From contig NZ_CP026652.1 of NCBI RefSeq assembly GCF_002946835.1, forward strand, positions 3,906,001 to 3,970,000: DNA of 64,000 nucleotides, read 5' to 3'. Positions 2,426 to 8,402 of this stretch are shown piece by piece. The notes beneath the pieces were generated by a model. The model was given only the letters and a program-made list of their open reading frames with translations, searched no databases and was not told where the DNA came from. A program made the position numbers and the translations under genes. The stretch is from Streptomyces dengpaensis (GTDB lineage Bacteria > Actinomycetota > Actinomycetes > Streptomycetales > Streptomycetaceae). The first letter of the stretch is position 1. Each line of letters starts with the position of its first letter.

Positions 2426-3289
2426 TCAGGAGAGCTGGAGCAGCCCCCTCAGCAGGTCGCGGCTCTCCGACGGACCCGGGCTGTCCTGCTGCAACTGCTT
2501 CAGCGCGCCCTCGTACTGCAGGACGTCCTCACGCTTGTCCAGATAGAGCGCACTGGTGAGCTGTTCCAGATAGACGACGTCCGACAGGTCGGACTCCGGG
2601 AAGCTCAGGATGGTGAACGAGCCGCTCTCGCCGGAGTGCCCGCCGAAGCTGAACGGCATGACCTGAAGGCGTACGTTGGGGCGCTCCGAGACCTCGATCA
2701 GATGCTGGAGCTGTTCGCGCATCACCTCGCGGTCGCCGTACGGGCGGCGCAGCGCGGCCTCGTCGAGGACGATGTGGAACTCCGGGGCGTTCTCGGAGAC
2801 GAGGTACTTCTGGCGCTCCAGGCGCAGCGCCACACGCCGGTCGATGTCGGCGGCGGACGCGCCCTTCATGCCGCGCCGGACGACCGCGCGCGCGTACGCC
2901 TCGGTCTGCAGCAGGCCGTGCACGAACTGCACTTCGTACACCCGGATCAGGTGGGCCGCGCCCTCGAGGCCGACGTAGGTCGGGAACCAGCTGGGCAGGA
3001 CGTCGGAGTAGCTGTGCCACCAGCCGGCGACGTTGGCCTCCTTGGCGAGCGAGACCAGGGACGTGCGTTCCGCCTCGTCCGTGATGCCGTACAGCGTCAA
3101 CAGGTCCTCGACGTCGCGCGTTTTGAAGCTCACCCGTCCCAACTCCATGCGGCTGATCTTCGATTCGGAGGCACGGATCGAATAACCGGCCGCTTCCCGG
3201 GTGATGCCGCGCGCCTCCCGCAGGCGCCGGAGCTGTGACCCCAGCAGCATGCGCCGCACCACCGAGCCGCTCGACTCACCAGCGCTCAC
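2426..3289 (-). CDS. XRE-family HTH regulator with DUF5753 (WhiJ-like)
   Basis: A 287-residue protein with an N-terminal XRE helix-turn-helix (LLGSQLRRLREARGITREAA, then SESKISRMELGR) and a C-terminal DUF5753 domain (about residues 85-280, HGLLQTEAYARAVV and the FSFGGHSGESGSFTIL stretch). This is the WhiJ/AbaA-orfA type, present as many paralogues in Streptomyces and typically paired with DUF397 proteins and RsbW-like ATPases to control development and antibiotic production. The GTG at 3289 (reading VSAGESSGS) is preferred over an upstream GTG at 3334. It is divergent from the ATPase gene at 3588, and a DUF397 gene lies at 4278, completing the usual trio. Confidence 0.92.
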   Translation of the reverse strand: MSAGESSGSVVRRMLLGSQLRRLREARGITREAAGYSIRASESKISRMELGRVSFKTRDVEDLLTLYGITDEAERTSLVSLAKEANVAGWWHSYSDVLPSWFPTYVGLEGAAHLIRVYEVQFVHGLLQTEAYARAVVRRGMKGASAADIDRRVALRLERQKYLVSENAPEFHIVLDEAALRRPYGDREVMREQLQHLIEVSERPNVRLQVMPFSFGGHSGESGSFTILSFPESDLSDVVYLEQLTSALYLDKREDVLQYEGALKQLQQDSPGPSESRDLLRGLLQLS

Positions 3290-3485
3290 GTTCGTCCGCC
3301 TCCCCAACCGTCTTCCGACGCCGAAGTCTGCCACTAAAACACTTCAAGCAGTACTCGTTCGGTTACGGAAACGGAAAGTAGCCAACCGTGCCCTACAGGA
3401 AAAGGTCAGAGGGGCGTCAACAAAGGGGAAGAAGGTGACAGAAGAAATGAGCAATAAGCGGCAGAGGAAGGTCCAATTCGGGCGT

Positions 3486-3514
3486 GTGCACGTGCATCTG
3501 CCCTTGCATCTGCC
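3486..3514 (+). promoter_or_regulatory. Shared upstream element, copy 1 (ATPase gene side)
   Basis: A 29-bp element that begins GTGCACGTGCATCTGCC and contains TGCATCTGCC twice. It recurs in reverse orientation at 4643-4671 with a single mismatch. In both places it lies 74-80 bp upstream of a start codon and reads in the direction of the gene. A -35-like TTGCAT falls inside the element (3504-3509), but the -10 region 17 bp on (AACCAT) is poor. It lies inside the reading frame if translation began at the ATG at 3448, which argues for the 3588 start. Confidence 0.6.
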
Positions 3515-3587
3515 TGTCGCATTCGGAACCATGGTCCCCGCGCCACCGCTGCATCGCAACGACCGCGAACACCCGGGAGTGCCTCGC

Positions 3588-4115
3588 ATGGGGACGAATG
3601 GATCGACCATGCTCGAGCCCTTACGGCAGGGACTTCCGCCGCTCGATCCCGCGGCCGTGTCCAACGCCGCCTGCTGCGCCCTGCCCGCCCGCTTCGAAGC
3701 GGTGCGCGAAGCACGGCAGTTCACCCGAAGAACGCTGGACCAGTGGGACATCGGCGACCGCTTCGACGACGTCGGCCTGGTGGTCTCCGAGCTCGTCACC
3801 AACGCGCTGCGCCACGCACTTCCCTCGGACACACCCCGCCCGGACCAAGGGCCGCCCGTGCGGCTGCACTTGATGTCGTGGACCTCGCGCCTGGTGTGCG
3901 CGGTGCGCGACCCCAGTCACGGCAGCCCGGTCGCGGGCGACTCGGACGACTTCTCCGCGGAGTCGGGGCGCGGCCTCTTCCTGGTCGACTCGTTCGCCGA
4001 CAGCTGGGGCTGGCACCCGCTCGCGGGCACCCTCAGCGGCAAGGTCGTATGGGCGCTGTTCCGGCTGCCACCGTCGGGGCCAAGCGCGCTTGCCGCCGCA
4101 CTTCCGGCCGAATAG
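3588..4115 (+). CDS. RsbW-like ATP-binding protein (HATPase_c_2), TTA-containing
   Basis: A 175-residue histidine-kinase-like ATPase of the anti-sigma-factor type found near WhiJ-like regulators. The N box is seen at VGLVVSELVTNALRHA and the G box near ESGRGLFLVDSFADSWG. It probably phosphorylates or sequesters a protein partner. The ATG at 3588 (MGTNGSTMLEPL) follows a GGGAG-like stretch at 3574; an in-frame ATG at 3448 is possible but would place a repeated regulatory element inside the gene. Codon 12 is TTA, the leucine codon read only by the developmentally timed bldA tRNA, so translation is probably restricted to late growth. A strong hairpin ends the transcript at 4118. Confidence 0.88.
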   Translation: MGTNGSTMLEPLRQGLPPLDPAAVSNAACCALPARFEAVREARQFTRRTLDQWDIGDRFDDVGLVVSELVTNALRHALPSDTPRPDQGPPVRLHLMSWTSRLVCAVRDPSHGSPVAGDSDDFSAESGRGLFLVDSFADSWGWHPLAGTLSGKVVWALFRLPPSGPSALAAALPAE

Positions 4116-4117
4116 CG

Positions 4118-4145
4118 AACCGCGGCGCCTTGTGGCGCCGCGGTT
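4118..4145 (+). terminator. Hairpin terminator after the ATPase gene
   Basis: A perfect 12-bp GC-rich stem AACCGCGGCGCC with loop TTGT begins two bases after the stop codon of the ATPase gene. It has no T-tract, as is common in Streptomyces. It sits between convergent genes and could serve both. Confidence 0.75.
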
Positions 4146-4277
4146 CTACGCGCGTTCACGCAACGTCGCATGACTGTCGCGCTCAGTGGCGGGAGCCTCC
4201 CGGCACCGGTCGCCTGCCGTCGGTCGCCTTCGTCGGTCGTCAGCCGACCGCGTCGGCCGCCTCGTCCGCACCGGCCA

Positions 4278-4562
4278 TCAGCCCGCTATCAGGTGGTCGA
4301 ACTCGCCGTCCTTGATGCCCAGAAGCATCGCCTCGATCTCGGCGCGCGTGTAGACGAGCGCGGGCCCCTCGGGGAACCGCGAATTGCGCACGGCCACGTC
4401 CCCGCCGGGCAGCCGCGCGAACTCCACGCATGAGCCCTGCGAGTTGCTGTGCCGGCTCTTCTGCCAGGCCACCCCGTTCAACTCGGTCGCCGCCATGCCG
4501 TTGTACACGTCGTCAGCCATGCCGTTGTACACGTCATCCACGTCGTACACGTCGTGGTCCAC
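4278..4562 (-). CDS. DUF397 small regulatory protein
   Basis: A 94-residue protein whose last ~65 residues are a typical DUF397 domain: VAWQKSRHSNSQGSCVEFA, then VAVRNSRFPEGPALVYT and a final IEAMLLGIKDGEFDHL. DUF397 proteins partner XRE/DUF5753 regulators, and one lies about 1 kb away. The N-terminus is unusual, with a near-duplicated DDVYNGMA motif encoded by an imperfect DNA repeat (4486-4540), followed by ATELNGV. The GTG at 4562 is preceded by GGGGAGCG. The gene is convergent with the ATPase gene but shares its upstream element, which suggests the two are co-regulated. Confidence 0.85.
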   Translation of the reverse strand: MDHDVYDVDDVYNGMADDVYNGMAATELNGVAWQKSRHSNSQGSCVEFARLPGGDVAVRNSRFPEGPALVYTRAEIEAMLLGIKDGEFDHLIAG

Positions 4563-4624
4563 AGGTCGCTCCCCGGTCGTGCAGTGGCTGAAGTGGCCAT
4601 TGATGCAGTGGTCAACTGACCCGG

Positions 4625-4653
4625 ATCATAACTCTGTTCATGTGCAGATGCAT
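4625..4653 (-). promoter_or_regulatory. Promoter candidate of the DUF397 gene
   Basis: On the minus strand ATGCAT (4648-4653) is followed after 17 bp by TATGAT (4625-4630), a close match to the -10 consensus. The -35 hexamer lies inside the shared 29-bp element, so a protein bound there would directly affect RNA polymerase. Confidence 0.5.
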
Positions 4654-4671
4654 GGGCAGATGCACGTGCAC
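4643..4671 (-). promoter_or_regulatory. Shared upstream element, copy 2 (DUF397 side)
   Basis: Reverse complement of the element at 3486-3514, with one mismatch in 29 bases. It lies 80 bp upstream of the DUF397 start and overlaps its predicted -35 hexamer. Confidence 0.6.
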
Positions 4672-7972: not shown

Positions 7973-8014
7973 CGCCGTGGGTCACGGTAGGGCCGATGGG
8001 GCGGGGGGCTGAGG

Positions 8015-8402
8015 TTGCGGGCCACGGTGGGGCCAAGGTTGCGGGTCGGTGGGGCCAAGGTTGCGGGTCGGTAGGGCCGAGGTTGCGGGTCGGTAGGGCC
8101 GAGGCTGCGGGTCGGTAGGGCCGAGGCTGCGGGTCGGTAGGGCCGAGGCTGCGGGTCGGTAGGGCCGAGGCTGCGGGTCGGTAGGGCCGAGGCTGCGGGT
8201 CGGTAGGGCCGAGGCTGCGGGTCGGTAGGGCCGAGGCTGCGGGTCGGTAGGGCCGAGGCTGCGGGTCACGGGAGGGCCCGAGGTTGCGGGTCGGTAGGGC
8301 CGAGGCTGCGGGTCACGGGAGGGCCCGAGGTTGCGGGTTGCTGGAGGGCTGAGGCTGCGGGTCGCCGGAACGCTGAGGATGCAGGTTGCCGGAGCGCTGA
8401 GG
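8015..8402. repeat. Tandem array, 17 units of 22-25 bp
   Basis: Units read (C/T)TGCGGGTCGGTAGGGCC plus GAGG. Seven consecutive 22-bp copies at 8105-8258 are identical. Flanking units diverge and grow to 24-25 bp at both ends (GTCACGGGAGGGCC variants). There are no unique spacers, so it is not CRISPR. The 22-bp unit is not a multiple of three, so it is unlikely to be coding. It fills the space between the lipoprotein gene and the stop codon of the DUF2786 gene. Confidence 0.95.

What the first reader, a model, noticed from the sequence alone, without database searches (positions are those of the whole stretch)
3486..4671. The same 29-bp element precedes two convergent genes (ATPase and DUF397)
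Copies at 3486-3514 (+) and 4643-4671 (-) differ at one base. Each points towards its gene and lies 74-80 bp from the start codon, and each contains a double TGCATCTGCC. Copy 2 overlaps a good -35/-10 pair. The XRE/DUF5753 regulator next door is the obvious candidate binder. This would give a self-contained regulon of regulator, DUF397 partner and kinase-like ATPase, with a defined operator that could be searched genome-wide.
Basis: partly seen in the sequence, partly recalled or inferred. Interest (0 to 1): 0.75.

Follow-up and report, generated by a model that had tools for sequence, protein, structure and literature searches.

The report
Twin operators of a WhiJ-type regulator
Two near-identical stretches of DNA in front of an ATPase gene and a small DUF397 gene look like the docking site of the neighbouring DNA-binding regulator, and the same pair recurs across the soil bacterium genus Streptomyces and beyond, so that a poorly understood family of developmental switches becomes directly testable.

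Summary
The repeat is real and very probably an operator. The Streptomyces locus is a WhiJ (XRE/HTH_31+DUF5753) - AbaA (HATPase) - BldB (DUF397) type module. The two copies are the genome's only exact core matches. Both sites occur in 80 of 80 orthologous loci; the pattern is in 392 of 392 sampled Streptomyces genomes, mostly one forward plus one reverse match. In both promoters the second repeat unit lies 17 bp from a conserved -10 hexamer (78/80 and 70/80), at the -35 position.

The site follows the regulator's recognition helix: 72 of 75 loci with KISRxELG and an ATPase/DUF397 neighbour have TGCACGTG upstream of a neighbour; 0 of 43 others do. It stays with these target genes when gene order changes, also in other families of the class.

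Best reading: the XRE protein binds and most likely activates the ATPase gene and its own DUF397 antagonist. Binding and sign are not shown. Nearest precedent: WhiJ9-iosA (PMC10294661). Other WhiJ clades show other motifs, suggesting a helix-operator code. A genome-wide regulon and self-regulation of the XRE gene are not supported.

The parts
3486..3513 (+). Operator copy 1: GTGCACGTGCATCTGCCCTTGCATCTGC; TGC every 6 bp, two full 12-bp units
   Evidence: best conserved of 272 intergenic 28-mers (mean identity 0.990 against 0.774) in window + 80 orthologs
3504..3509 (+). TTGCAT: second unit of copy 1 = putative -35 of the ATPase promoter; the first T is the base that differs from copy 2
   Evidence: TTGCAT in 80/80 orthologs at site 1, in 0/80 at site 2
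3527..3532 (+). AACCAT: putative -10 of the ATPase promoter, 17 bp from TTGCAT
   Evidence: [AG]ACCAT at exactly 17 bp in 78/80 orthologs
3588..4115 (+). HATPase_c_2 protein, 175 aa, AbaA-like (anti-sigma/RsbW-type); TTA codon at 3621-3623
   Evidence: Pfam PF13581 E 7.5e-13; TTA among the first 30 codons in 75 of 80 orthologs, those whose start was not matched counted as without
4644..4671 (-). Operator copy 2: GTGCACGTGCATCTGCCCATGCATCTGC
   Evidence: site in 80/80 orthologs
4648..4653 (-). ATGCAT: second unit of copy 2, at the -35 position of the DUF397 promoter
   Evidence: second unit 17 bp from TATGAT in 70/80, 29 bp (17+12) in 6/80, 18 in 2, 19 in 2; the unit itself is ATGCAT in 47/80
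4625..4630 (-). TATGAT: -10 of the DUF397 promoter
   Evidence: present in 80/80 orthologs
4278..4562 (-). DUF397 protein, 94 aa, BldB-like; no TTA codon
   Evidence: Pfam PF04149 E 3.6e-18
2426..3289 (-). XRE regulator, HTH_31 + DUF5753, 287 aa, WhiJ-like; recognition helix SESKISRMELG; proposed binder
   Evidence: Pfam PF13560 and PF19054; helix conserved

Best explanation
The two elements are twin operators of the neighbouring WhiJ-type regulator. The XRE/HTH_31 domain reads TGCACGTGCAT plus a second TGCAT-like unit 12 bp further on. The second unit sits at the -35 position, 17 bp from the -10 of each promoter, so the bound protein would touch or replace RNA polymerase at -35. By analogy with WhiJ9 it most likely activates the ATPase (AbaA-like) and DUF397 (BldB-like) genes. 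DUF397 then antagonises the XRE protein, giving negative feedback, while the ATPase is the output, whose TTA codon makes translation depend on the bldA tRNA. Shown: the elements, their conservation, the promoter spacing, and the tracking of helix and target genes. Inferred: binding, activation, feedback and the bldA dependence.
For: Both sites in 80/80 orthologous loci (the 80 best of 546); element 1 is the top of 272 intergenic 28-mers. Pattern with up to 2 mismatches in 392/392 sampled Streptomyces genomes, about 315 (counted by eye) with exactly one forward and one reverse match; XRE ortholog in 389/392. Not coding: the element's frame relative to the ATPase start is 52/16/10 over 78 of 81 sequences. 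Natural variants insert whole 12-bp units and keep a unit at the -35 position (6 of 80). All 27 family orthologs outside Streptomyces have TGCACGTG near the XRE gene, as do 26 of 34 loci from other families of the class. Helix KISRxELG with neighbour: 72/75 with site; others: 0/43. Dropping 13 loci fetched because of site hits leaves 59/62. Sites stay upstream of DUF397 and/or ATPase when the order is rearranged. Four near-paralog XREs with the core helix but no neighbours (L231, L236, L237, L238) have no site within 1.7 kb. Precedent: WhiJ9 binds direct repeats and is needed for iosA activation; abaA paralogs rise in a bldB mutant (PMC10294661).
Against: No binding or expression data. Three loci with the helix and neighbours lack TGCACGTG upstream of them (L229, L240, L305). 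The loci are related, so the Fisher value is not a true probability. Of 12 core-helix loci with no neighbour recognised, 6 do hold a TGCACGTG somewhere in the stretch fetched; whether an undetected target lies there was not checked. In 3 of the 43 contrast loci the helix was wholly or partly unaligned (L153, L154, L173), and 9 of the 43 have a TGCACGTG elsewhere in the stretch. WhiJ9's site lies 113 bp upstream of the TSS, not at -35. A site over -35 fits a repressor equally well, and WhiJ itself was proposed to repress development (PMC4255298). Per gene, 62 of 65 ATPase genes but only 51 of 69 DUF397 genes have the site.
Confidence: 0.8

Rival explanations
1. Same binder and sites, but the XRE protein is a repressor: bound over -35 it blocks both promoters, and DUF397 relieves it (derepression loop).
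For: The sites cover the -35 position of both promoters. The DUF397 promoter has a perfect -10. A repressive role with relief by DUF397 was proposed for WhiJ (PMC4255298).
Against: Neither promoter has good hexamers at both positions (TTGCAT/AACCAT; ATGCAT/TATGAT), as expected of activated promoters. WhiJ9 is needed for iosA activation and its overexpression raises iosA (PMC10294661, abstract and section headings).
Confidence: 0.27
2. The sites are bound by another, global regulator, and the neighbouring XRE is incidental.
For: Binding was not tested. Sigma-E target sites have been reported for sco3424 and SCO3423, presumed orthologs (PMC6767563, PMC10771440, passages).
Against: Two sites in most genomes. 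Site presence follows the XRE helix class, 72/75 against 0/43.
Confidence: 0.07
3. Element 1 is coding sequence, the N-terminus of a longer ATPase, and the likeness to copy 2 is secondary.
For: In the window the frame is open through the element (VHVHLPLHLP).
Against: Across 78 sequences the element is in all three frames relative to the ATPase start (52/16/10), while its DNA is kept.
Confidence: 0.02
4. The copies are a mobile or interspersed repeat, or a recent local duplication.
For: Near identity in the window.
Against: No further exact copies in the genome, flanks unlike, both sites kept at the same places across the genus with a fixed site-specific difference: TTGCAT in 80/80 at site 1, 0/80 at site 2.
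Confidence: 0.01

Closest known systems
WhiJ9 - iosA - BldB9 of Streptomyces venezuelae (PMC10294661: abstract, introduction, discussion and passages seen)
   Same: WhiJ-type XRE with a DUF397 partner; direct repeats upstream of the neighbouring target gene; the authors speculate that abaA paralogs are controlled likewise by their adjacent WhiJ
   Different: WhiJ9 site: three repeats of CGXXCTCAAC, 113 bp upstream of the iosA TSS, in one intergenic region. Here: TGCACGTGCATCTG-type units 12 bp apart, at the -35 position of two separate promoters, one of them that of DUF397
SCO3421 / SCO3423 / SCO3424 locus of S. coelicolor (PMC4255298, passages; sco3424 in PMC6767563, passage)
   Same: [quoted passage not shown] adjacent AbaA-like gene nearly always with a TTA codon, as here
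   Different: No operator was given in the passages seen; orthology of the window rests on the description, not on the named sequences
whiJ (SCO4543) / SCO4542 / SCO4544 (described in PMC4255298, passages; Ainsa 2010 itself not seen)
   Same: Three-gene module; the SCO4542 mutant phenotype is suppressed by deletion of whiJ
   Different: A different, narrowly distributed paralog; the review (2013) states that there was no information about WhiJ targets
Scr1/Scr2 (SCO4441/SCO4442; PMC6262351, passages) and 14 XRE-DUF397 pairs (PMC10364602, abstract and passages)
   Same: XRE/DUF397 pairs; in PMC10364602 none of the fourteen studied behaved as a toxin-antitoxin system
   Different: The words searched ('motif', 'binding site' and others) gave no operator in either paper

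Membership tests
WhiJ/AbaA/BldB module | Regulator with N-terminal XRE-type HTH and DUF5753 | tested here: met
   PF13560 and PF19054
WhiJ/AbaA/BldB module | Adjacent HATPase_c (anti-sigma-like) gene | tested here: met
   PF13581 E 7.5e-13, 3588-4115
WhiJ/AbaA/BldB module | Nearby small DUF397 gene | tested here: met
   PF04149; separated from the XRE gene by the ATPase and convergent to the ATPase, unlike the own-genome paralogs, where it mostly follows the XRE gene
SCO3421 orthogroup | Near-universal in Streptomyces; TTA codon in the ATPase gene | tested here: met
   389/392 sampled genomes; TTA in 75 of 80
SCO3421 orthogroup | Reciprocal best match to the named S. coelicolor protein | not tested
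   S. coelicolor protein not fetched; S. violaceoruber L134 is an ortholog
WhiJ9-type operator | Short direct repeats upstream of the neighbouring target gene | tested here: met
WhiJ9-type operator | CGXXCTCAAC, three copies, about 113 bp upstream of the TSS | tested here: not met
   Different sequence, two full units, at the -35 position
WhiJ9-type operator | Binding by the purified XRE protein | not testable with these tools
   Needs SPR/EMSA
Type II toxin-antitoxin | DUF397 toxic, XRE antitoxin | not tested
   Literature against: none of 14 pairs behaved so (PMC10364602 abstract)

The most novel reading that the evidence does not exclude
The 20-odd WhiJ-type modules of a streptomycete are insulated by a protein-DNA code: each clade of recognition helices has its own private operator at its ATPase/DUF397 promoters (KISRxELG with TGCACGTGCATCTG; THATIRRMEKA with TCTGTAAATTACAGA; the L160 clade with TGTACGGG, mostly at 11-bp spacing; the L166 clade with CGTGCTAC...AACGGGT; WhiJ9 with CGXXCTCAAC). 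Cross-talk would then run only through mixed DUF397 oligomers. The window's operator would be an ancient member of this code, kept across families of the class.
Probability: 0.6. Interest if true: 0.75.

Novelty: new variant of a known kind. Interest (0 to 1): 0.62.

Why it matters
WhiJ/AbaA/BldB-type genes form large paralogous sets in streptomycetes and affect sporulation and antibiotic production (PMC10294661, PMC10364602), yet my searches turned up one experimentally mapped WhiJ-type operator (WhiJ9). Here is a predicted operator for a near-universal paralog: two sites in most Streptomyces genomes sampled, a fixed relation to promoters, and matching helix residues. It yields direct tests: SPR with 28-mers, helix swaps, promoter reporters. 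It also suggests how DUF397 itself is under the control of its XRE partner (a feedback loop) and how many paralogous modules could avoid DNA-level cross-talk. The ATPase's TTA codon ties the output to bldA.

Tried and rejected
Coding element: rejected by the frame tally. Repeat or mobile element: rejected. Wider regulon in the genome: rejected (the nearest further site, L003, lies in an ORF). General direct-repeat scan of 26 regions upstream of XRE genes in the own genome: p of at most 0.05 (40 shuffles each) in the window and in L150, L155, L160, L163, L165, L166 and L168, not in the other 18; single genomes were too weak, so clades were compared instead. The three-mismatch pattern at family level (150 of 150 genomes) is uninformative as a tally, because the reversed control is about as frequent; only its close matches were used as leads. 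PDB sequence searches for the XRE and DUF397 proteins found nothing. The published sigma-E site string of sco3424 was looked for in L134 and not found. The pattern for the second-clade operator found nothing in own-genome loci L149, L150, L152 and L156, so that operator was not shown in this genome. No structure prediction and no protein-database search was run.

The motifs of the other clades were picked from the same loci, so their on-diagonal counts are partly by construction; the clade-166 count used only the 15 of 30 loci with at least 65% identity. The printed output was cut, and clade 166 was read from its tail.

Full report
WHAT IS THERE. The window lies in an 8.71-Mb genome whose nearest named relatives are Streptomyces. 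The locus holds an XRE regulator (HTH_31 + DUF5753, 2426-3289 -), an ATPase (HATPase_c_2, 3588-4115 +) and a DUF397 gene (4278-4562 -). A 28-bp element occurs at 3486-3513 (+) and 4644-4671 (-), identical but for one base; over 29 bp there are two differences. It is built of TGC every 6 bp, with two full 12-bp units; TGCACGTGCA in it is a palindrome. Exact copies of the core occur nowhere else in the genome, and inexact ones are no commoner than for the reversed pattern (17 against 21).

CONSERVATION. One scan gave orthologous loci in named genomes, nearly all labelled Streptomyces; the best 80 of 546 were kept, so these are close relatives (XRE 90-97% identical). Both sites are in 80 of 80 (in L087, L095, L101 and L120 site 1 carries a one-base insertion and was missed by the ungapped scan). 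Element 1 is the best conserved of 272 intergenic 28-mers in the alignment of 81 sequences (0.990 against a mean of 0.774); the leader between it and the ATPase start is nearly as well conserved (0.97 from 3539 on). Genus-wide, in 392 sampled genomes, all match the pattern with up to 2 mismatches; by my count by eye about 315 have exactly one forward and one reverse match and 28 lack one of the two orientations; the reversed control is mostly 0 but gives scattered matches, up to 12 in one genome. The match list of that call was capped, so that the paired matches lie close together was seen only for the genomes listed. The XRE ortholog is in 389 of 392 at E 1e-80. Of the three others G001 and G375 are incomplete (79 and 55%); G329, on inspection, has all three genes and both sites (L182).

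NOT CODING. In the window an open frame runs through element 1 in phase with the ATPase. In the 78 sequences (window and 77 orthologs; 3 of 81 skipped) where the start could be matched, the element stands in all three phases (52, 16, 10), at 98-114 bp from the ATG. The DNA is kept, the frame is not. An in-frame stop between element and start was seen in only 2 of the 78.

PROMOTER ANATOMY. At site 1 the second unit reads TTGCAT in 80 of 80, and exactly 17 bp on lies [AG]ACCAT in 78 of 80. At site 2 the second unit is ATGCAT in 47 of 80, otherwise variable, and TTGCAT in 0 of 80; it lies 17 bp from TATGAT in 70 of 80; in 6 the distance is 29 bp, one extra 12-bp unit; in 2 it is 18 and in 2 it is 19. 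So the one base that differs between the copies is a fixed, promoter-specific difference, and a repeat unit sits at -35 in both. No TSS was measured.

THE SITE FOLLOWS THE REGULATOR. In 27 orthologs from other genera of the family (62-69% identical) all have at least two TGCACGTG matches (overlapping matches on the two strands counted apart) within 1.7 kb of the XRE start. Near paralogs (54-61%): 13 of 20; of the 7 without, 4 have no ATPase or DUF397 neighbour recognised. Far paralogs (43-50%): 20 of 22 have none. Own-genome paralogs: 23 of 25 have none (4 further loci gave no XRE match). In a table over 139 loci, 118 with a neighbour: recognition helix KISRxELG 72 with a site in the 350 bp upstream of a neighbour, 3 without (L229, L240, L305); others 0 of 43. 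Thirteen of the 72 (L182-L191, L222-L224) had been fetched because of a site; without them it is 59 of 62. In 3 of the 43 the helix was wholly or partly unaligned, and 9 of the 43 have a TGCACGTG elsewhere in the stretch. Of 12 core-helix loci without a recognised neighbour, 6 hold a TGCACGTG somewhere in the stretch fetched. These loci are related by descent, so the Fisher value is not a probability.

THE SITE FOLLOWS THE TARGETS. Gene order varies: XRE-ATPase divergent with DUF397 convergent to the ATPase (window), DUF397-ATPase divergent with the site between them (L222 and others), XRE and DUF397 convergent with the ATPase beyond (L204, L205, L207), DUF397 then XRE in one direction (L293), ATPase-XRE divergent followed by DUF397 (L281, L287). 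In these examples the site is upstream of DUF397 or the ATPase; per gene 62 of 65 ATPases and 51 of 69 DUF397s of core-helix loci have it. In L204, L205 and L207 the XRE gene has none in the 450 bp upstream of it, so autoregulation is not a constant feature. Of 34 loci from other families of the class (L277-L310), 26 have TGCACGTG somewhere in the stretch held; only 56 of 197 genomes drawn from the class, 16 of them Streptomyces, had an XRE match at E 1e-60 at all.

MECHANISM. Most likely: the XRE protein binds both operators and, as WhiJ9 does for iosA, activates; DUF397 acts back on the XRE protein; the ATPase is the output, with a TTA codon (3621; among the first 30 codons in 75 of 80) tying it to bldA. 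The precedent is PMC10294661 (abstract, introduction, discussion and passages seen): loss of BldB raises the abaA paralogs, BldB gave no sign of DNA binding, and WhiJ9 is needed for activation of iosA and binds direct repeats. Repression is the main rival, since the unit covers -35.

OTHER CLADES. In another XRE clade (helix mostly THATIRRMEKA) the region upstream of XRE holds TCTG[TC]AA[AT]TT[AG]CA in 12 of 13; in the L160 clade TGTACGGG in 17 of 22 (with a looser pattern: three copies in 5 loci, two in 6, one in 7, none in 4; 12 of 16 spacings are 11 bp); in the L166 clade a CGTGCTAC/AACGGGT-type motif in 11 of 15. Off-diagonal hits are 0 for TGCACGTG, TGTACGGG and the TCTG motif, and 0-2 for the looser L166 motif. 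The motifs other than TGCACGTG were chosen from these same loci. This suggests, but does not prove, a helix-operator code that keeps the modules apart.

LITERATURE. Seven searches, open-licence papers only, turned up one mapped WhiJ-type operator (WhiJ9); a search for the 10-mer TGCACGTGCA with Streptomyces found no paper. [quoted passage not shown] the window fits that description, but the S. coelicolor sequence itself was not compared. PMC6767563 and PMC10771440 (passages) list sco3424 and SCO3423 among sigma-E targets. Supplements were not read.

VERDICT. A real operator pair, ancient and specific; binder strongly supported by covariation, sign of regulation open.

Noticed in passing
window 8000-8400: Minisatellite-like array of about 22-bp units (gggtcggtagggccgaggctgc) between two ORFs.
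   Followed up: no
window 4497-4545 (-): In-frame duplication in the DUF397 N-terminus (DDVYNGMA twice) that fewer than a tenth of the 78 aligned sequences share.
   Followed up: no
window 3528-3535: ACCATGGT, a palindrome overlapping the putative -10, conserved in the Streptomyces set and present in other genera (L202, L213, L217), there running into another TGCACGTGCA.
   Followed up: partly
window 3441-3485: Block upstream of element 1 (consensus GGAAAAAATGGCCAACAAGCGGTACGGGAGGGTCCAATTCGG) is also well conserved in the 81 sequences; role unknown.
   Followed up: no
window 3325-3380: Conserved block in front of the XRE gene (CTGCCACTAAAACACTTC...), perhaps its own promoter, separate from the operator.
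   Followed up: no
L231, L236, L237, L238: Near-paralog XREs with the same recognition-helix core but no recognised ATPase/DUF397 neighbour and no site within 1.7 kb: orphan regulators that might act on the module's sites elsewhere.
   Followed up: partly
L291, L306, L307, L309: XREs with KMSR in place of KISR lack TGCACGTG in the stretch held, a possible single-residue change of specificity.
   Followed up: partly
L160, L311-L332: Another WhiJ clade with TGTACGGG direct repeats, mostly at 11-bp spacing, upstream of the XRE gene.
   Followed up: partly
L242-L244, L246-L251, L253, L255, L258, L260: Another WhiJ clade with a near-palindromic TCTGTAAATTACAGA upstream of XRE, towards the ATPase.
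   Followed up: partly
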